A DNA stretch of 64,000 nt from Clostridia bacterium. Lineage in GTDB: Bacteria > Bacillota > Clostridia > Christensenellales > Aristaeellaceae. Location of the stretch: positions 62,001-126,000 of the forward strand of contig JAFTPN010000049.1 in the NCBI GenBank assembly GCA_017463245.1, in the 5' to 3' direction. Numbering within the stretch: position 1 is the first letter of the stretch; each line of letters opens with the position of its first letter. The notes below the pieces were generated by a model. The model searched no databases, was not told the origin of the DNA, and saw only the letters and a program-made list of their open reading frames with translations. This document shows positions 16,614 to 24,837 of the stretch, piece after piece. Position numbers and translations under genes: made by a program.

Positions 16614-17074
16614 TTGTCACGAACGAAATCACCAATATGGAGAAATACGGCAATTACAAAGAGCAGATGGGCAGATTGAAAAAGGCGATGGACAATCATT
16701 TCCTGCTGGAAGCTCTGTTCATCGAATATGCTATCATAGAAGATCGTACAGAATCAATTTTGTATCATTCCGGCATAAAACTGCGTGACAGAGCTGGATT
16801 GATGGAAAAAGTGAAAGCTATTCATAAACTATTGGCAAAAGGCAGCATGATAAGCAAATACATTGTGCCGGATATGCTGGATGAAATAGACGTTTGGAGT
16901 AAAAAGCGAAACGACATGATTCATTCCCTGATGAAACAAAATCTAACCACAGATGGACTGGAAGAGATCGTCATGCAGGGACAGCAGATTGTCAAAACGC
17001 TGTGTTCAAAGACAACCTCTTACAAGAGGGCGTTGGAAAGAGAAAAAAACCGAATGGGGGAACAGACAAAATGA
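16610..17074 (+). CDS. Putative HEPN-motif protein
   Basis: A 154-residue all-helical soluble protein. Residues 100-105 read RNDMIH, which fits the Rx4-6H catalytic motif of HEPN RNases with the common polar residue after Arg. HEPN proteins often act as toxins or defence effectors. The start is uncertain: GTG at 16610 overlaps the previous stop, and an ATG at 16637 is also possible. The stop overlaps the next gene's ATG (ATGA). The HEPN call rests on the motif and helical pattern only. Confidence 0.5.
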   Translation: MIVTNEITNMEKYGNYKEQMGRLKKAMDNHFLLEALFIEYAIIEDRTESILYHSGIKLRDRAGLMEKVKAIHKLLAKGSMISKYIVPDMLDEIDVWSKKRNDMIHSLMKQNLTTDGLEEIVMQGQQIVKTLCSKTTSYKRALEREKNRMGEQTK

Positions 17075-18291
17075 AGAAGATGCTGGCTGCGCTGATGGCG
17101 TGTATGCTATTGTTGTCGGCAATTCCTGCAACGGCTGATAATGTGCGGACAAGCGGTGATTATCAATATACCATCAAGGGCAATGGTACTGCAACGATTG
17201 TTGGTTATACAGGTAAACAAAATGATATTATCCTTCCGTCTCTAATAGACGGATATACTATAACAACCATCGGAGCAAACGCATTTGCTTGCGAGCGCAA
17301 AGCGAATACACGTATTTCCGTATCACTGCCATCTAATATTACATCAATTGAAGATATGGCTTTTTATAATCGCAATGTTTACTCGATCAATATCCCAGAC
17401 TCGTTAGCGCACATTGGGTATGGTGCATTTAGTGGATGTGCAAGAGAAATACAGTTCCGAATCGCAAACAATCATCCCTATTTTGCGACGATCAACGGAT
17501 CGCTATATAATAAGAGGACAAAAGAACTCCTAAAATGGTGTTATGTTGATACTTTTTACGGTGCAGAAGCCATCCCCGAAGGGATTACTTCAATTGGTAG
17601 CTACTCATTTGAGAATATGGATGGTTCAACCGGGGAAACCGGTCAAGCTGGTTTGGATTTTCCGTTATCAATTACTCAAATTGGTGAAGGCGCTTTCAAA
17701 AACGCAGAACGGTTTATTCTGACCTTTAATACTAACAGCAATATTCGCACAATTCCTGACTGGGCCTTTGGTGGAGATATCAAAGACAATTTCTATGCAG
17801 TACGAATTGATGCATTACCTTATGGTGTAAAGCATATTGGTAATTATGCATTCCAAGATGCATTATATATACCTTCAGCACGTGTTGATGCACCAACATT
17901 TGATGAGTTTTTAAGTCAAGTTGAAGCTATCGGTCAATATGCTTTTTCTTATTTTCGTTATAGTACAAACGAGCAAATGACTATAACTATTCCCGAATCA
18001 TGCAAATTAATCGGAGAAGGGGCGTTCTATAAGATCGATAATGATGTTTATGGAATAAGTCTGGCGGTTGGAGTAGAAAGAATTGAATCAAAAGCATTTA
18101 TCATAAATTCTCCTAAATATGAAACAGTCTATCTCCCCGACAGTTTGATCTATATTGCAAATGATGCTTTTAATGCAGATACCAAATTCATTGTTGAAAA
18201 GGGGTCTTATGCTGAACGGTGGGCAGAAGAAAATGCATACAACTACACCATCAACGGCGAAGAACAGAACCTTGACTGGCTGAACAACTAA
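17071..18291 (+). CDS. Secreted BspA-type leucine-rich-repeat protein
   Basis: A 406-residue exported protein. The signal peptide MKKMLAALMACMLLLSAIPA is followed by LRR_5-type repeats of the form I-x-x-I-G-x-x-A-F, for example ITTIGANAFAC, ITSIEDMAFYN, LAHIGYGAFSG, ITQIGEGAFKN and VKHIGNYAFQD. Such proteins bind host or microbial surfaces. The start at 17071 is set by the signal peptide and the ATGA overlap with the HEPN-motif gene. No cell-wall sorting signal is seen. Confidence 0.85.
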   Translation: MKKMLAALMACMLLLSAIPATADNVRTSGDYQYTIKGNGTATIVGYTGKQNDIILPSLIDGYTITTIGANAFACERKANTRISVSLPSNITSIEDMAFYNRNVYSINIPDSLAHIGYGAFSGCAREIQFRIANNHPYFATINGSLYNKRTKELLKWCYVDTFYGAEAIPEGITSIGSYSFENMDGSTGETGQAGLDFPLSITQIGEGAFKNAERFILTFNTNSNIRTIPDWAFGGDIKDNFYAVRIDALPYGVKHIGNYAFQDALYIPSARVDAPTFDEFLSQVEAIGQYAFSYFRYSTNEQMTITIPESCKLIGEGAFYKIDNDVYGISLAVGVERIESKAFIINSPKYETVYLPDSLIYIANDAFNADTKFIVEKGSYAERWAEENAYNYTINGEEQNLDWLNN

Positions 18292-19383: not shown

Positions 19384-20214
19384 TCAACCCGCCGTCCCCA
19401 AGATCATGTTCACAGCCTTTTCAGCTTTGCCAGCAGCGGAAACGATGAACCGCTTATCATCTTTCAGCACTTGCAGCCAGTTCTGAATGTATGCCGCGTT
19501 ATTGCGGAAGCTGTCCGGCGTTTCAAGGCCCGTATGATTGACCAGAGCTGCCGCGCCGATCTCTGCGATCAATTCTTCCTTGCTGTAATCCTCCGAACCG
19601 AACGCCGCAACGCGATCCAGACGATCAAGGCGGGATTTGTGGCCCGTGCTGTGGGTCATTTCGTGGAAGAGGGTACTGTAATATTCAGCAGTCGCGGAAA
19701 ACTGACGCATATGGGGAACGGTGATGGAATCGGTGGACGGACGGTAGAAAGCACGGTCGCCCTCTTCGTGGATCAGCTTCACACCTTCGCGGGAGCAATA
19801 GGCGGCAACAAGTTCGTCGGCGGTTTCGTCTGCCGTGGCAGGATTCGCGGGAACTTCTGCTGCATATCGTGCGGTCAGCCCTTCGCATTGGTCGATGTGG
19901 AATACGTTGTAATAGCGCAGGAAGGGAATCTCCTTAACTTCGCCCGTTTCTTCGTCCTCTTGCTCAATCCACTTCCAGAAAACCACCATGCTGGCCTTTT
20001 CGCCCTTCTTCACATAGCCGCCAGCCTTTTGAATCTGCGCATATGTGGCATATTCGCCGGGACGGCCCAAGAGCATCTGATTCAAGAGGGAATAAGGTTT
20101 GCCGGTTGCGTGGGAGACTGCCGCGCCGCTTGCGATCCACGGTTTGCGCCACGGAATGATGCCGGTTTCCATCTGCTGCATGATTCGGGAGGTAACTTCT
20201 GCGTAAATATCCAT
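19384..20214 (-). CDS. ArdC-family antirestriction protein
   Basis: A 276-residue protein with an N-terminal ArdC ssDNA-binding domain (MDIYAEVTSRIMQQMETG, then WRKPW and GKPYSLLNQMLL) and a C-terminal zinc-metallopeptidase-like domain with HEMTHSTG near residue 184. These proteins protect incoming single-stranded DNA of plasmids and integrative elements from host restriction. AAAGGAG precedes the ATG at 20214. A stem-loop with a conserved loop lies 22 nt upstream of the start. Confidence 0.88.
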   Translation of the reverse strand: MDIYAEVTSRIMQQMETGIIPWRKPWIASGAAVSHATGKPYSLLNQMLLGRPGEYATYAQIQKAGGYVKKGEKASMVVFWKWIEQEDEETGEVKEIPFLRYYNVFHIDQCEGLTARYAAEVPANPATADETADELVAAYCSREGVKLIHEEGDRAFYRPSTDSITVPHMRQFSATAEYYSTLFHEMTHSTGHKSRLDRLDRVAAFGSEDYSKEELIAEIGAAALVNHTGLETPDSFRNNAAYIQNWLQVLKDDKRFIVSAAGKAEKAVNMILGTAG

Positions 20215-20235
20215 TTTCTTTGCTCCTTTGCTTGT

Positions 20236-20273
20236 GGGGAGCAAGGAAGTGTGGTAGAATATCCTTGCTCCCC
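20236..20273 (-). ncRNA. Stem-loop 1 of the CTACCAC-loop family (ArdC leader)
   Basis: Perfect 12-bp stem GGGGAGCAAGGA / TCCTTGCTCCCC with a 14-base loop; in the transcript (minus) the loop contains TCTACCACA. It sits just before the ArdC ribosome-binding site. Confidence 0.6.
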
Positions 20274-20304
20274 GGTTTTCTTGATCGTTAGTCGGGAGAG
20301 TGTC

Positions 20305-20332
20305 GCCGGAGTGTTGTGGTAGATGCTCCGGC
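20305..20332 (-). ncRNA. Stem-loop 2 of the CTACCAC-loop family
   Basis: 7-bp stem GCCGGAG / CTCCGGC with a 14-base loop containing TCTACCACA on the minus strand. It lies directly after the stop of the gene at 20335. Confidence 0.6.
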
Positions 20333-20334
20333 TT

Positions 20335-20604
20335 TTAGTTTACGCTGAATCGGCGGGCCGTGGTCTGCTTCGTGAACTGTGCGGCGATCTCCGGCAACGC
20401 CTTTTTGAGTGCCGTGCTGTCCAGACGGGAAGAAGTGAAGGTTTTCCACGATACTTTGAACGCTCCGGCGAAAAGGGTTTCTTCATCGCCCATGACCTTC
20501 TTAATTTCATCTTCCACAGCGGCGATTTCCGCTTCCAGCTCTTCCTTCATCCTTTTGAGTTCCAGCAGCTCCTTGACCTTGACTTCCATGCTCTGATTAG
20601 ACAT
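20335..20604 (-). CDS. Stand-alone YqaJ C-terminal-like protein
   Basis: An 89-residue protein: an N-terminal coiled-coil (LLELKRMKEELEAEIAAVED), then FKVSWKTFTSSRLDSTALKK and a C-terminal TARRFSV. The second half resembles, from memory, the last segment of YqaJ/lambda-exonuclease family recombination nucleases, without the nuclease domain. AAAGGAGG precedes the ATG. It is the first gene of the ArdC operon, behind a promoter with an operator-like palindrome. Confidence 0.6.
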   Translation of the reverse strand: MSNQSMEVKVKELLELKRMKEELEAEIAAVEDEIKKVMGDEETLFAGAFKVSWKTFTSSRLDSTALKKALPEIAAQFTKQTTARRFSVN

Positions 20605-20657
20605 TGTGTTTGCCTCCTTTATTCTTGGAAGTTTGTCACTTCCTCTTTACAGTTACT

Positions 20658-20686
20658 ATTTTACACTAATTAGTTCAAAAAGTCAA
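20658..20686 (-). promoter_or_regulatory. Promoter of the ArdC operon
   Basis: Minus strand: TTGACT (20686-20681), 17 bp, TAAAAT (20663-20658). Confidence 0.75.
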
Positions 20687-20700
20687 TAGGTATTTGAACT
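20672..20700. promoter_or_regulatory. Operator-like palindrome over the ArdC-operon -35
   Basis: AGTTCAAA and TTTGAACT are perfectly inverted around 13 bases and cover the -35 of the minus promoter. The divergent HTH gene product (20775) is the obvious candidate binder. Confidence 0.5.
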
Positions 20701-20726
20701 TTTTCGTGAAAAATTTTTGTTTTCAG

Positions 20727-20755
20727 TTGACTACTAAAATTATTTCGTGTATAAT
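20727..20755 (+). promoter_or_regulatory. Promoter of the divergent HTH gene
   Basis: TTGACT (20727-20732), 17 bp, TATAAT (20750-20755), about 20 bp before the start codon. Confidence 0.85.
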
Positions 20756-20774
20756 CTCAAGAGAGGTGATAAAC

Positions 20775-20993
20775 ATGGGTATGGTTGAACCTATTCGCAT
20801 TGCATTGGTCAAGCGTGGGAATATTTCCGAATCAGAGCTTGCGCGGCGCATTGGTATTTCGCCGCAGAACTTGCACAACAAAATGAAGCGCGACAATTTC
20901 ACCGAAACAGATTTGCGGGAAATTGCGGACGCGCTGGGTTTGCGTTTGGAGATTTCTTTTGTTGATCCTAAAACAGGTGAAAAGATTTGCTGA
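20775..20993 (+). CDS. Small XRE-type repressor
   Basis: A 72-residue HTH protein: ISESELARRIGISPQNLHNKMKR (about 17-39) is the helix-turn-helix, followed by FTETDLREIADALGLRLEISF. This compact form is common as a phage or element repressor. GAGAGGTGAT precedes the ATG at 20775. It is divergent from the ArdC operon and probably represses it. A strong terminator follows. Confidence 0.82.
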   Translation: MGMVEPIRIALVKRGNISESELARRIGISPQNLHNKMKRDNFTETDLREIADALGLRLEISFVDPKTGEKIC

Positions 20994-21015
20994 TTTATGC
21001 ATAAATGAGAAAATC

Positions 21016-21056
21016 GGGACAGCTCCGCATTTCGCCATGCGGTTGCTGTCCCTTTT
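21016..21056 (+). terminator. Terminator of the small repressor gene
   Basis: Outer stem GGGACAGC / GCTGTCCC enclosing CCGCAT / ATGCGG, followed by TTTT. The region 21057-21175 holds no supported gene. Confidence 0.85.
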
Positions 21057-21175
21057 GCGTTCGGTGTGCCGTATGCCGGGGTATCTTTTGGGCGCAAAAA
21101 CTATTCGCACCCCGAACCGGCCCCTGCCTGGCATACATTCCCGCTAAATGTGATTTTGTTTTCGGAAAACGATCC

Positions 21176-21376
21176 TTATCGCCACATTTTGCGAAGTATT
21201 TCCGCAAACTCATTGACCTTTTTCTTTGCGGTCTGATATGCTTTTTCTTCGACCTTGATTTCGACTTCTTTCTTGTCCAGCTCTTTGCGGATGAGGGCAG
21301 GAAGTTGCTTCAAAATGTATTCTACTGTGGATTCTGCCAAAGCATCTGCGTAATCACAAAACTCTTTGATGTGCAT
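21176..21376 (-). CDS. Small charged coiled-coil-like protein
   Basis: A 66-residue, strongly charged helical protein (IRKELDKKEVEIKVEEKAYQ in the middle) that I do not recognise. No good ribosome-binding site is visible. It follows a micro-ORF and an RHH gene in the same direction and may depend on them for translation. Confidence 0.4.
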   Translation of the reverse strand: MHIKEFCDYADALAESTVEYILKQLPALIRKELDKKEVEIKVEEKAYQTAKKKVNEFAEILRKMWR

Positions 21377-21394
21377 ACCGTGATAAGGGTTGCT

Positions 21395-21469
21395 CTACAT
21401 ACCAGCCCGCAGATTCATTTGGTGGCGGATGAGTTCTGCCTCTCCGCTCCGAAGTTCAAATCTATTCAT
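21395..21469 (-). CDS. Possible 24-residue leader or micro-ORF
   Basis: ATG at 21469 with AAAGGAG upstream encodes MNRFELRSGEAELIRHQMNL plus four residues. Its ATG overlaps the end of the RHH gene in another frame, which suggests coupling, but its small size makes the call weak. Confidence 0.3.
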   Translation of the reverse strand: MNRFELRSGEAELIRHQMNLRAGM

Positions 21470-21635
21470 AATCGTGCTCCTTTCGTGCAGCGGCTTCTTC
21501 TTCGCCCTGCGCTGTAATAAATGTGCGGATCAATCTCCGCATGATCTGTGAAATGGTGGTGTCTGTCCGCTTCGCGATAGCCGCAAGGTTCTCTTTTTCA
21601 TCTGCGGACAGTCTGATTCCGATGTTTGCGATCAT
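21462..21635 (-). CDS. Ribbon-helix-helix DNA-binding protein
   Basis: A 57-residue protein, MIANIGIRLSADEKENLAAI followed by AKRTDTTISQIMRRLIRTFI, with the beta-strand/helix/helix pattern of Arc/CopG-type regulators. AAAGGAG precedes the ATG at 21635. In elements such small RHH proteins control copy number, transfer or toxin-antitoxin operons. Located downstream of the winged-helix replication-type gene, after ~375 bp of structured non-coding DNA. Confidence 0.75.
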   Translation of the reverse strand: MIANIGIRLSADEKENLAAIAKRTDTTISQIMRRLIRTFITAQGEEEAAARKEHDYE

Positions 21636-21763
21636 AACCACTCTCCTTTCACAGATTCATGGAGAATGCAAAAGATGAATTGTCAAACCGTGTCCAACAC
21701 AGTATAATTTGCCGCGTTTTTATCCGGCTTCCTCTTGATCGTGAGGGACAATTCTTTGCCGGA

Positions 21764-21797
21764 TTTGCTCTTCTGGTGGTAGCAATGCAAGAGCAAA
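21764..21797 (-). ncRNA. Stem-loop 3 of the CTACCAC-loop family
   Basis: 9-bp stem TTTGCTCTT / AAGAGCAAA with a 16-base loop containing TTGCTACCACC on the minus strand, about 130 nt upstream of the RHH gene. Confidence 0.6.
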
Positions 21798-21803
21798 GAA
21801 GAA

Positions 21804-21877
21804 GGGCAGGAAACGTATTGCAGTAATGTTCTGCGGCATTCGCGCTGCGGATTGTGCTTTGCAATACGTTCCCGCCC
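21804..21877. repeat. Long imperfect inverted repeat
   Basis: A 19-base arm (from 21804) and an 18-base arm (21860-21877) share ACGTATTGCA inverted, with G/C-rich outer ends, around a 37-base centre that itself holds CTGCGG repeats. The gap 21636-22011 (376 bp) contains this and two of the loop-family hairpins but no supported gene; it could be an origin or an attenuator region. Confidence 0.5.
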
Positions 21878-21954
21878 TTTGATTGGCTCTGTAAGCCGAT
21901 TTCTGGCATTTTCAAGCTGTTTCCCTACACTCTTTCGGAAAGGCTCACGTTGCT

Positions 21955-21992
21955 CTGCTCTTGCTCCTACGGTGGTAGCAAATGAAGAGCAG
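21955..21992 (-). ncRNA. Stem-loop 4 of the CTACCAC-loop family
   Basis: 8-bp stem CTGCTCTT / AAGAGCAG with a 22-base loop containing TTGCTACCACC on the minus strand. It begins about 20 nt after the stop of the winged-helix gene. Confidence 0.6.
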
Positions 21993-22011
21993 ATCTTGAC
22001 GCTCTCTGCGA

Positions 22012-22713
22012 TTAGAAATCAAATTCATCTTCATCAAGGAACGCAAATAGTTTTCTCTTTGGCGGCTGCGTGGAAATCCTGCTACACTCAACCTCTGCTT
22101 TTGATGGCAAGCCCGATGCGCCAGCATCGGGCGCAGCCGGGGTGCGGGGTGTCCCCGCATCTATATTATCTATCCGTTCTTCTCTATCCTTATCTATTTT
22201 TCTATTATCTATTTCTTTATCGGGTGGCGAAGTAAGTGAATCGCGGGACGATAAGGGCAATTCGTCAGGCGAAGTTACACTTCGCGAGACGGATTCTGAA
22301 ACTTCGCCATCCGATATAGGGTCTTCGCCTCGCGGGACGGAAGATGTTTCCTCAAACGTGATTCCTTCAAAGTGTTCATCGGGATGCGTTCTGTCTTTCG
22401 GTTCGCGGGGCGATGTGTAAAAATCAAAGAGGTTTCCTTTTCGCCAGACGAGATAACCCTCGATCTCCAACAGGCGCAAATACTTGTGGAAGGTTGTGCT
22501 TTTTATTCCAGCGTACTCTTCGGCAGCCGCAGGGGACAACGCAAATTGATATTCGTTATTGTTCGCGGCGAGGTATAAATAGAGCTGCAATCCAAAAGGT
22601 TTGAGCGTTTTATTGGCTTGCATCCAATCCTCATTGGCGATCTGCAAGAAATTTGCCTCTACGCGTGGCTTGTGAATACAAATGCTTTTCTGATTTTCGC
22701 ATGATCTTGGCAT
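22012..22713 (-). CDS. Winged-helix, replication-initiator-like protein
   Basis: A 233-residue protein. The N-terminal third (about 25-95) reads like a winged-helix domain: LKPFGLQLYLYLAANNNEYQ, AGIKSTTFHKYLRLLEIEGY, LVWRKGNLFDFY. The C-terminal part is rich in Asp, Ser, Pro and Glu and probably disordered, ending KRKLFAFLDEDEFDF. Similar proteins occur as replication or maintenance regulators in mobile elements. This function is an inference. Confidence 0.55.
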   Translation of the reverse strand: MPRSCENQKSICIHKPRVEANFLQIANEDWMQANKTLKPFGLQLYLYLAANNNEYQFALSPAAAEEYAGIKSTTFHKYLRLLEIEGYLVWRKGNLFDFYTSPREPKDRTHPDEHFEGITFEETSSVPRGEDPISDGEVSESVSRSVTSPDELPLSSRDSLTSPPDKEIDNRKIDKDREERIDNIDAGTPRTPAAPDAGASGLPSKAEVECSRISTQPPKRKLFAFLDEDEFDF

Positions 22714-22824: not shown

Positions 22825-23174
22825 AAAACGGGCATTGTGGGGCGACTGATAATGCCTGTGACGGCAAGCACTCCGTCTGACGAGAGCGGCAAAGGGTTAC
22901 GGTGGAGGCAATTCGCCCTGTGGTTTGTATGGCTCTTGAAAATGAGGACTTCGCAGGGCAAAATTTGCGTTGTCATGCGAACGCGAGGCGAAAATTCGTG
23001 CTGGAAGCGGAGGGTTATATGAAGTGGGAACAAAAAAACAGAGGCGGAGGCGTGGCTGCACTCCGCGTAGCGGTGGAGGGACGTTTTCCGTTACCGTGAT
23101 CGTTCTACTCTTGTATTCACACATTATTGCCACATTTGAAGAGCCGATATGTTCGCATTCCATGTATCGGATTC

Positions 23175-23203
23175 TTGCTAACCGAGACATTTTGTGGTAT
23201 TAT
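23175..23203 (+). promoter_or_regulatory. Promoter of the integrase gene
   Basis: TTGCTA (23175-23180), 17 bp, TATTAT (23198-23203), about 40 bp before the start codon. Confidence 0.65.
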
Positions 23204-23243
23204 ATCACTGGTAAATGGTTCTTCATTTCCGAAAGGAAAAGGA

Positions 23244-24485
23244 ATGACCGAATTACAATCTTCTCCCCGCAACAAGAAAAACGGATCATCTTTGCGAAAA
23301 GGTGAATCTCTTCGCGGTAATGGCGGTTATGAATACCGCTGGACTGACGCAAACGGCAAACGCCATTCCGTTTATGCTTCCACGCTTGATGAACTCCGTG
23401 CAAAAGAGGAAAGCATAACGAAGGATCAATGCGATAAGATCAAAACCGAGGCGCGATTTGTTACCGTCAATGAAATGTTTGATTTGTGGAAGCAGCTCAA
23501 ACGTGGATTGAAGGATAACACTTTCCAGAATTATCAGTACATGTATTTGCAATTCGTGGCCCCTTCTCTTGGCAAGCGGCGAATATCAACGCTGGTCAAG
23601 TCAGATGTGAAGCGATTTTACAATACATTGGCTGATGAACGTGGGCTTGCAATCTCAACCATAGACTGCGTACATACTGTTCTGCATCAGGTGTTGGAAA
23701 TGGCCGTGGATGATAACTACATCCGCCGTAATCCATCCGACAATGTGCTGAAAGAGTTGAAACAGAATCAGGCGTTGAGAGGTGAGAAGCGTCGGGCGTT
23801 GACGAAAGCGGAACAGGACTTGTTTCTGAATTATCTGAAACGCACTCCGCAGAATCGGCATTGGTATCCTGTCTTTGCAATCATGATCGGTACTGGAATG
23901 CGTGTGGGGGAAGCGGTTGGGCTTCGATGGTGTGACATTGACCTTGACAACGGTATGATAGACATAAACCATACGCTTGTGTACTATCGCCATGCGGAGA
24001 ATGGATGTTACTGCAACATCCACACACCGAAAACCGCAAATGGCATCCGACAAATTCCCATGCTGGGCTTTGTGAAGGACGCATTTCTGGAAGAACAGCG
24101 TTATCAGGCTGAAAATGGTATTCGCTGCGAGGCCACAATCGATGGTTACACGGATTTCATCTTCGTCAATCGCTTTGGACAGCCGCAGCATCAAGGTACG
24201 CTCAACAAAGCATTACGAAGGATCATCCGAGACTGTAACGACGAAGTGTTTCTGAAAAAGAAGCACAATCCTGTGTTGTTGCCGCATTTTAGCTGTCACA
24301 GTCTGCGACATACATTCACCACAAGAATGTGTGAAGCTGGTGTGAATGTGAAGGTGATTCAAGATGCGCTGGGTCATGCCGATGTATCAACCACCCTCAA
24401 CATCTATGCGGACGCAACAAGAGACTTGAAGAAGTCAGCTTTTGAAGAATTTGAGGCTCATTGGAAGGGAGCTTTGGAGGGCTGA
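23244..24485 (+). CDS. int: Tyrosine site-specific integrase
   Basis: A 413-residue tyrosine recombinase of the Tn916/phage-integrase type: N-terminal arm-binding domain, core-binding SAM-like domain, catalytic domain with R220 (GTGMRVGEAVGLRW), H352-S-L-R355, H378 (ALGHADVSTT) and nucleophile Y388 (NIYADA). All catalytic residues are present. The ATG at 23244 has AAAGGAAAAGGA upstream; a longer frame from 23127 is not supported. It ends 4 bp before the first right-end arm repeat, as expected for the integrase of this element. Confidence 0.95.
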   Translation: MTELQSSPRNKKNGSSLRKGESLRGNGGYEYRWTDANGKRHSVYASTLDELRAKEESITKDQCDKIKTEARFVTVNEMFDLWKQLKRGLKDNTFQNYQYMYLQFVAPSLGKRRISTLVKSDVKRFYNTLADERGLAISTIDCVHTVLHQVLEMAVDDNYIRRNPSDNVLKELKQNQALRGEKRRALTKAEQDLFLNYLKRTPQNRHWYPVFAIMIGTGMRVGEAVGLRWCDIDLDNGMIDINHTLVYYRHAENGCYCNIHTPKTANGIRQIPMLGFVKDAFLEEQRYQAENGIRCEATIDGYTDFIFVNRFGQPQHQGTLNKALRRIIRDCNDEVFLKKKHNPVLLPHFSCHSLRHTFTTRMCEAGVNVKVIQDALGHADVSTTLNIYADATRDLKKSAFEEFEAHWKGALEG

Positions 24486-24489
24486 ACCG

Positions 24490-24519
24490 TACGCCAATCG
24501 TACGCCAAAAATACGCCAA
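24490..24519 (+). repeat. Three arm-type TACGCCAA repeats, right end
   Basis: Copies begin at 24490, 24501 and 24512, exactly 11 bp apart, matching the four copies at the left end. Confidence 0.8.
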
Positions 24520-24528
24520 TTTCGTCGT

Positions 24529-24555
24529 AAAGCCCTTGATTTACAAGGGTTTTCG
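24529..24555 (+). other. Right inverted-core sequence (candidate att-type site)
   Basis: The arms CCCTTG / CAAGGG flank ATTTA. It matches the left copy (13868-13893) in 25 of 26-27 positions apart from one extra C and one T/A change. The stretch 24556-24691 holds no gene; it ends in the hairpin GAGGGGCC-GTA-GGCCCCTC (24674-24692). Confidence 0.6.
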
Positions 24556-24685
24556 CCTCCATTGCACCGAACGGAACGGATTGACCGAAAAAAGCAGCAT
24601 CAAGCGATAAGAAGCGGGATTCGACGACATTTCGCTTGAACTTGCCGAAAACGGCTGGAAAATCGCCCATTTAGAGGGGCCGTAG

Positions 24686-24826
<141 letters not shown>

Positions 24827-24837
24827 TCCAGTTTCCC

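What the first reader, a model, noticed from the sequence alone, without database searches (positions are those of the whole stretch)
20236..21992. Four stem-loops with unrelated stems but one shared loop sequence
Seen directly: stem-loops at 20236-20273, 20305-20332, 21764-21797 and 21955-21992 have different perfect stems of 12, 7, 9 and 8 bp, yet all loops carry GTGGTAG on + (CTACCAC in the minus transcript). Loops 1 and 2 are both 14 nt and share TGTGGTAGA; loops 3 and 4 share GGTGGTAGCAA. All lie between minus-strand genes of the element, one just before the ArdC ribosome-binding site and two right after stop codons. Conserved loop on variable stem is what a loop-binding RNA regulator, RNA-RNA kissing control or a processing signal would leave. 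I know no named motif that fits.
Basis: partly seen in the sequence, partly recalled or inferred. Interest (0 to 1): 0.8.

Follow-up and report, generated by a model that had tools for sequence, protein, structure and literature searches.

The report
Antisense RNA switch for antirestriction gene
Two of the four hairpins frame a conserved promoter-like and terminator-like pair on the strand opposite an antirestriction gene of mobile DNA; this pair likely makes a small antisense RNA that is predicted to switch the gene's translation off, while the other two hairpins share the loop letters but remain unexplained.

Summary
The hairpins are real, but the loop was read on one strand only. On the other strand, hairpin 1 holds an extended -10 element (TGG-TAGAAT, TTGTGG 17 nt upstream) and hairpin 2 is an 11-bp terminator-like hairpin followed by T's. 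They frame a predicted ~70-nt RNA antisense to the leader of ArdC, an antirestriction protein. A covariance model found the unit at 46 places (E < 1e-6) in 34 of 300 genomes of the family, mostly just upstream of ArdC. In 49 loci examined, the promoter pattern is in 48 (other strand 0; shuffles 29 of 2450), and in 18 of the 19 that lost the shared heptamer. Hairpin 2 pairs in 176 of 176 cells on the antisense strand, 128 of 176 on the other. Hairpin 1's 3' arm matches the ArdC ribosome-binding site and tracks it between loci, so antisense pairing would free that arm to close the site. This works like the antisense attenuator of plasmid pSK41, here on a gene that is needed in the recipient and thought to need only brief expression. 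Hairpins 3 and 4 have one close relative in 200 genomes and may be further targets of the RNA's loop. Nothing was tested at the bench.

The parts
20232..20237 (+). -35 element TTGTGG of the predicted antisense promoter
   Evidence: read; TTG at 17 or 18 nt from an extended -10 in 48 of 49 loci. It matches the -35 consensus at only 3 of 6 places, so the scan does not list this promoter.
20252..20260 (+). extended -10 element TGG-TAGAAT inside hairpin 1
   Evidence: kept as TGnTAnnnT in 18 of 19 loci that lost the heptamer
20267..20340 (+). predicted antisense RNA, about 71-74 nt; the 5' end is assumed 7 nt after the -10, the 3' end is set in the T run
   Evidence: promoter and terminator positions; no transcript data
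20305..20336 (+). hairpin 2 as intrinsic terminator: 11-bp stem, loop GTGGTA, then TTTT
   Evidence: listed by the scan; in 43 of 49 loci on this strand, 0 of 49 on the other; 176 of 176 cells paired against 128 of 176 on the minus strand
20236..20273 (-). hairpin 1 in the ArdC leader: 5' arm 20273-20262, loop 20261-20248, 3' arm 20247-20236, the 3' arm being an anti-Shine-Dalgarno
   Evidence: fold -22.9 kcal/mol; arm and Shine-Dalgarno track each other between loci
20220..20226 (-). Shine-Dalgarno region GGAGCAA of ArdC
   Evidence: 7-nt match to the 3' arm of hairpin 1
19384..20214 (-). ArdC-like antirestriction gene, 276 aa from ATG
   Evidence: Pfam ArdcN and MPTase-PolyVal
20335..20604 (-). 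89-aa gene upstream of the unit; no Pfam or NCBIfam family
   Evidence: homologues in 11 of 60 genomes
21764..21797 (.). hairpin 3, loop with GTGGTAG on +; possible trans target of the antisense RNA loop (untested)
   Evidence: stem and heptamer kept in the one relative
21955..21992 (.). hairpin 4, 81% like hairpin 3 over 31 nt; loop partly paired inside
   Evidence: outer stem has a mismatch in the one relative

Best explanation
Hairpins 1 and 2 are the two ends of a conserved, predicted ~70-nt antisense RNA gene on the + strand opposite the ArdC leader, and this RNA likely switches ArdC translation off by freeing an arm that covers the ArdC ribosome-binding site. Steps: (a) seen in the sequence: an extended -10 with a TTG -35 lies across hairpin 1 on the + strand, and hairpin 2 on + is a GC-rich hairpin followed by T's. 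(b) Seen: hairpin 1's 3' arm is complementary both to its 5' arm and to the ArdC Shine-Dalgarno. (c) Inferred: without the antisense RNA the two arms pair and ArdC is translated. (d) Inferred: the antisense RNA, whose predicted 5' end falls at nt 3-8 of the 5' arm, pairs with the leader and takes up that part of the arm; the 3' arm then pairs with the Shine-Dalgarno and translation stops. (e) Inferred, for loci with the heptamer: the RNA's GUGGUAG loop first kisses the complementary CUACCAC loop in the mRNA. (f) Inferred: since transferred DNA brings no antisense RNA, ArdC would be made in a burst in a new host until the RNA builds up. Hairpins 3 and 4 stay open, as possible further targets of the same loop.
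For: Promoter pattern TTGnnn-17/18-TGnTAnnnT on the antisense strand in 48 of 49 loci, 0 of 49 on the sense strand, 29 of 2450 dinucleotide shuffles; kept in 18 of 19 loci without the heptamer at the -10. Terminator in 43 of 49 on that strand and 0 of 49 on the other, 232 of 980 mononucleotide shuffles. Hairpin 2: 176 of 176 cells paired on the antisense strand, 7 of 11 pairs changed on both sides, against 128 of 176 on the ArdC strand; wobbles over 30 distinct stems 50 to 0 for the antisense strand. Arm and Shine-Dalgarno: 36 distinct leaders 17.83 against 16.16 permuted (0 of 1000), 17 without the common core 17.47 against 14.63 (0 of 2000). Shine-Dalgarno unpaired 0.51 alone, 0.16 with the antisense footprint blocked, lower in 41 of 42; with the freed stretch shuffled 0.31, real lower in 40 of 42. 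By hand count over, 42 of 42 ArdC matches of 390 bits or more with a start carry the promoter pattern or a model match: 38 model matches, 4 found by the pattern in leaders whose other letters differ.
Against: No transcript or repression data. The consensus scan does not list the hairpin 1 promoter, as its -35 matches 3 of 6. The search model contains the heptamer, so the 30 loci that have it are not independent evidence for the promoter. 6 of 49 loci have no called terminator, and one called (L083, 163 nt away) is probably chance. Wobbles in hairpin 1 are mixed, 19 for the mRNA strand and 12 for the antisense strand. L059 moves the wrong way in the accessibility test. All loci are related, so permutation counts are not probabilities. 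Three units (L075, L083, L085) precede other genes. Loci without the heptamer show no hairpin 1-hairpin 2 loop complementarity by eye.
Confidence: 0.7

Rival explanations
1. The antisense unit is real but acts in another way: by colliding transcription, by exposing the duplex to RNase, or by its 5' end pairing directly with the Shine-Dalgarno in trans.
For: Any antisense promoter facing a gene can interfere; the RNA's predicted 5' end is itself complementary to the Shine-Dalgarno (for the 5' ends, for the Shine-Dalgarno regions); by eye, L063 matches the RNA better than the 3' arm.
Against: The 3' arm tracks the Shine-Dalgarno between loci, and by eye L059, L069, L078 and L080 favour the 3' arm where the arms differ by wobbles.
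Confidence: 0.12
2. DNA operator: the inverted repeat of hairpin 1 flanks the -10 and is bound by a repressor; the arms change together because both half-sites follow one protein, and the copy at the Shine-Dalgarno is a third site.
For: Inverted repeats beside a -10 are typical of operators; the ardC-type genes of p576 are controlled by the repressor Reg (PMC8708921, Results part 2 and section 4.1); wobbles in hairpin 1 are mixed.
Against: It does not explain hairpin 2 as a terminator of the same strand. The p576 dual motif, up to 3 mismatches, is not in this region; 6 chance-level matches elsewhere in the window.
Confidence: 0.09
3. One reading: a protein binds the CUACCAC loops of the minus transcript at all four hairpins.
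For: The heptamer is in all four loops, and it is strictly kept in class A hairpin 2.
Against: Hairpin 2 pairs fully only on the other strand; the heptamer is lost in 19 of 49 hairpin 1 loops, the promoter in 1.
Confidence: 0.06
4. Single-stranded DNA promoter as on plasmids F and ColIb-P9: the hairpin folds on the incoming strand and drives early expression.
For: Such promoters drive antirestriction genes on those plasmids (PMC8708921, section 4.1).
Against: The -10 lies in the loop and the -35 mostly outside the hairpin, not in a duplex made by the fold, and the promoter points away from ArdC.
Confidence: 0.03

Closest known systems
RNAI and rep leader of staphylococcal plasmid pSK41
   Same: A ~83-nt antisense RNA over a leader is proposed to induce a stem-loop that makes the ribosome-binding site inaccessible (PMC5703833, passages). 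Here the predicted RNA is ~70 nt and would do the same.
   Different: It controls rep and plasmid copy number, ~100 nt upstream of the start; here the gene is ardC and the RNA starts inside the hairpin next to the Shine-Dalgarno. No sequence kinship was tested.
RNAI and repC leader of pT181, RNAIII of pIP501
   Same: Antisense RNA flips a leader between two folds (pre-emptor and attenuator; PMC5703833, passages).
   Different: There the outcome is transcription termination; here no T run follows the Shine-Dalgarno hairpin.
Establishment-gene control on pLS20-family plasmids (EGeRS1, EGeRS2/Reg)
   Same: Also lies directly upstream of ardC; meant to give brief expression after transfer (PMC8708921).
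   Different: EGeRS2 uses a protein repressor; EGeRS1 is 420-751 bp on pLS20, without a promoter found in either direction for the ardC copy, mechanism reported unknown. Here the unit is ~110 bp with an antisense promoter.
symR/symE of E. coli (recalled, no call)
   Same: A cis-antisense RNA over the 5' leader of a gene.
   Different: Another gene; I recall no anti-Shine-Dalgarno arm freed by the RNA.

Membership tests
Antisense-RNA translational attenuator (pSK41 type) | Antisense promoter and terminator facing the leader | tested here: met
   48 of 49 and 43 of 49 loci; prediction from sequence only
Antisense-RNA translational attenuator (pSK41 type) | Alternative leader fold that covers the ribosome-binding site when the antisense RNA is bound | tested here: met
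   computed only: 0.51 to 0.16 unpaired, 41 of 42 lower; shuffle control 0.31
Antisense-RNA translational attenuator (pSK41 type) | RNA is made and represses translation | not testable with these tools
   no expression data at hand
Antisense-RNA translational attenuator (pSK41 type) | Controls a replication initiator | tested here: not met
   45 of 54 places precede an ArdC-like frame; so 'works like', not a member of the rep-control family
Antisense-RNA transcription attenuator (pT181, pIP501) | Terminator-like hairpin with T run just before the start codon on the mRNA strand | tested here: not met
   window leader reads GGAGCAAAGAAAATGG after the arm; 0 of 49 loci have a terminator on the sense strand in the stretch scanned, which ends at the antisense start and does not reach the Shine-Dalgarno
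EGeRS2 / Reg | Dual motif TTATCCCnnTTATCCC at the promoter | tested here: not met
   no match up to 3 mismatches in this region
EGeRS1 | Region of 400-750 bp with many inverted repeats directly upstream of ardC | tested here: not met
   the unit and leader are ~110 bp, bounded by the upstream gene's stop codon
ssDNA promoter (Frpo type) | -35 and -10 in the duplex of the folded strand | tested here: not met
   -10 in the loop, -35 at and beyond the hairpin edge
Any Rfam 15 family | Match at gathering score | tested here: not met
   0 matches in the window; 10 sub-threshold matches at 20200-22050

The most novel reading that the evidence does not exclude
A new RNA-based timer for establishment genes: an antisense RNA that is absent from the recipient lets ArdC fire on entry and then silences it; the paired loops of leader and antisense RNA diversify in linked steps, as in plasmid incompatibility groups, and the same RNA loop also reaches hairpins 3 and 4 to tune a second operon of the element.
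Probability: 0.35. Interest if true: 0.85.

Novelty: new variant of a known kind. Interest (0 to 1): 0.7.

Why it matters
[quoted passage not shown] An antisense RNA would be a further way to get a burst on entry, since transferred DNA brings no RNA with it. The unit is an RNA family without a match in Rfam 15, present in dozens of genomes of one family of uncultured Clostridia, and a short reporter test would settle it. I found no paper on an antisense RNA over ardC (listings of an open-licence library that lacks most subscription papers).

Tried and rejected
Rfam at gathering and relaxed thresholds gave nothing useful. The loop letters alone (MCCTACCACAGCR) matched in 106 of 300 genomes, too short to be telling. 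I read the matches in 50 of those loci (51 matches): 5 have the hairpin 2 geometry, all at ArdC leaders already known; 5 have another, weak stem; 41 have none. Order-level search: 14 of 396 genomes at E <= 0.01, every match below 1e-6 in the window's own family; for the eight genomes outside it I printed about 260 nt at the middle of each locus and saw no ArdC leader, but did not search their flanks. The exact tandem pattern is absent from IMG/VR. In the plasmid and phage collections no record covers the locus: 9 and 3 records with at most 17% of the query. Hairpins 3 and 4 as promoter or terminator: the -10-like letters are TAGCAA and no T run follows; a better + promoter (21680-21708) lies outside them. 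In the best fold of + 21715-21890 hairpin 3 does not form. Not opened: 18 matches weaker than E = 7e-4 and one reverse-strand match (G113); ArdC matches without a start, and G152.
Full report
Observation. Hairpins 1 and 2 lie in the 120 nt between an 89-aa gene and ArdC (Pfam ArdcN and MPTase-PolyVal). Hairpins 3 and 4 lie between a 233-aa gene without a Pfam or NCBIfam match and a short gene that I read as ribbon-helix-helix-like (by eye).

Relatives. The 89-aa protein has matches in 11 of 60 genomes, at 17 places. Both hairpins are at 11 of the 17, hairpin 2 alone at one (L003), neither at four (L008, L011, L014, L018), and one place (L012) is cut off. The loop heptamer is the same while the stems differ. 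A tandem covariance model from three sequences (R1) found 52 of 300 family genomes at E <= 0.1, with 46 matches below 1e-6 in 34 genomes (my count from the list). I printed 54 places: those 46 and the next eight. 45 of 54 have an ArdC-like frame downstream by phmmer, one of them (L051) only a 19-aa remnant; 36 of 54 have the 89-aa type gene upstream. Of the nine without ArdC, L019, L030 and L074 look truncated or recombined, L081, L084 and L087 look like chance matches, and L075, L083 and L085 precede other genes. A scan of named genomes for the exact tandem pattern gave 25 stretches; 23 titles say Clostridia or Clostridiales, one Christensenella, one only bacterium, and 12 name a ruminant gut sample.

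The other strand. Hairpin 1's loop read on + is TGTGGTAGAAT, an extended -10, and the conserved CAAG beside the 3' arm is a TTG -35. From the 54 places I dropped five (L030, L074, L081, L084, L087) and used 49. TTGnnn-17/18-TGnTAnnnT is in 48 of 49 on the antisense strand, 0 of 49 on the sense strand and 29 of 2450 dinucleotide shuffles. Because the search model contains the heptamer, the telling part is the 19 loci without GTGGTAG at the -10: 18 keep the pattern, as TGTTATAAT, TGGTATTAT or TGGTACAAT, and L082 has TTGACA-17-TGCTATAAT. The heptamer can go; the promoter stays. Against this: the window's -35 matches the consensus at 3 of 6 places, so the stricter scan does not list this promoter.

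Terminator. Downstream of that promoter a hairpin with a T run occurs in 43 of 49 loci on the antisense strand and 0 of 49 on the other strand of the same stretch; mononucleotide shuffles give 232 of 980. One of the 43 (L083, 163 nt away) is probably chance; L019, L020, L021, L058, L075 and L085 have none by this test. The median predicted RNA is 69 nt. In the window the hairpin is 20305-20332, then TTTT; one search lists it among 9 such sites (shuffle mean 5.3). Sixteen class A copies taken by reference pair in 176 of 176 cells on the antisense strand, 7 of 11 pairs changed on both sides (0-1 of 500 shuffles as high on the main measures; slid versions at most 48% paired), against 128 of 176 on the ArdC strand. 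A strand-neutral count over 30 distinct stems gave 50 A-C and no G-T mismatches as read on the ArdC strand, all G-U in the antisense RNA.

Arm and Shine-Dalgarno. Hairpin 1's 3' arm is complementary to the ArdC Shine-Dalgarno region and follows it between loci: 36 distinct leaders score 17.83 against 16.16 (sd 0.31) with partners permuted, 0 of 1000; the 17 without the core TTGCTCC score 17.47 against 14.63 (sd 0.55), 0 of 2000. The loci are related, so these are not probabilities. With the antisense footprint blocked, the Shine-Dalgarno's mean unpaired probability falls from 0.51 to 0.16 in 42 loci, lower in 41 (L059 rises), by 0.3 or more in 25. With the freed stretch shuffled it is 0.31, and the real value is lower in 40 of 42. 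The predicted 5' end of the antisense RNA falls at nt 3-8 of the 5' arm as called by the script. Hairpin 1's own wobbles are mixed, 19 for the mRNA and 12 for the other strand over 33 stems, so its strand is inferred from the Shine-Dalgarno link.

ArdC with and without the unit. An ArdC search of 300 family genomes gave matches in 58. I fetched 20 leaders at places the model had not hit. Four (L205-L208) have the antisense promoter pattern and a fifth (L213) has TTGACA-17-TACAAT without TG; in these five I also see, by eye, a leader hairpin and an upstream hairpin beside an A run. The other 15 show no such unit to me, and G006's two ArdC leaders lack it. By hand count, 42 ArdC matches have 390 bits or more and a start; 38 have a model match and the other four are L205-L208. 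The unit thus marks one ArdC subgroup, with a few members below that score (L082, L086, L213). In 396 order genomes I found no convincing case outside the family.

Why one shared loop. In the class with the heptamer, the mRNA's hairpin 1 loop (CUACCACA) and the antisense RNA's hairpin 2 loop (UGUGGUAG) are complementary over 8 nt; RNAduplex gives -14.1 kcal/mol for the window. These loci carry the less ideal -10 TAGAAT (32 of 49), while TATAAT is found in 10, which may reflect a second demand on those letters (inference). On a tree of 42 ArdC proteins, 27 loci have the heptamer at both places, 13 at neither, 2 at the second only; of these two, L067 has it in the spacer and L072 has one changed letter in hairpin 1. 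The both-class needs 10 changes, at least 5 forced by well-supported branches (38 of 500 label shuffles need as few), so the loops switch together repeatedly. Exchange of whole leaders would do the same. L063, too short for the tree, has the heptamer in hairpin 1 only. Loci without it show no such complementarity, so the contact is not essential.

Hairpins 3 and 4. In 200 genomes their region has one close relative, G168, at 88% identity; two further matches are 24 nt long. There hairpin 3's stem and both heptamers are kept, and hairpin 4's outer stem has a mismatch. They have no good -10 and no T run. RNAduplex between the antisense loop and their minus loops gives -13.2 and -12.5 kcal/mol, so they could be trans targets, but nothing shows it.

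Literature. ArdC of R388 is needed in the recipient, not the donor (PMC7213743: abstract and passages). Establishment genes are described as needing rapid, transient expression; the Reg repressor and ssDNA promoters are known ways, EGeRS1 is unexplained (PMC8708921: abstract, Results parts 1-2 of 3, section 4.1). pSK41 RNAI is proposed to make the rep ribosome-binding site inaccessible (PMC5703833: passages). No listing showed a paper on an antisense RNA over ardC.

Verdict. A conserved antisense unit over the ArdC leader is well supported by sequence. That it represses ArdC translation is likely. That it times expression on entry, and that hairpins 3 and 4 belong to it, are open.

Noticed in passing
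window 21680-21708 (+): A near-consensus promoter TTGTCA-17-TATAAT that would read through hairpin 3, a long inverted repeat (21802-21822 / 21860-21880) and hairpin 4, against the rep-like/RHH operon: perhaps a second antisense RNA. In the one relative the -10 seems to read TATAAA.
   Followed up: partly
window 20280-20288 (+), 21734-21742 (+), 19073-19065 (-): CTTGATCGT recurs in three intergenic stretches of the element, once beside hairpins 1-2 and once beside hairpin 3; a fourth copy (from 19629, -) lies in ArdC coding sequence. Unexplained.
   Followed up: no
window ~21469-21180 (-): The small gene after the RHH-like gene has an in-frame TAG after 24 codons and then stays open.
   Followed up: no
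window ~24500-24830: The element's tyrosine integrase (23127-24485, NCBIfam XerA/XerD-like) ends next to what reads, by eye, like the 3' end of a lysyl-tRNA synthetase gene: a likely insertion site.
   Followed up: no
G016 (L019, L020, L021, L022, L030): One genome carries five copies of the unit, at least two of them decayed; cross-talk between copies would be expected if the loops pair in trans.
   Followed up: no
L083 6734-6806 (-), L085 864-939 (+), L075 1074-1164 (+): Hairpin 2 with the class A loop precedes other genes. In L083 and L085 a different fold with CCTCCTTGA complementary to the downstream TCAAGGAGG replaces hairpin 1, again an apparent anti-Shine-Dalgarno (by eye).
   Followed up: partly
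window 17002-18291 (+): A BspA-type leucine-rich repeat protein (Pfam LRR_5) sits beside the element's serine resolvase gene, as possible cargo.
   Followed up: no
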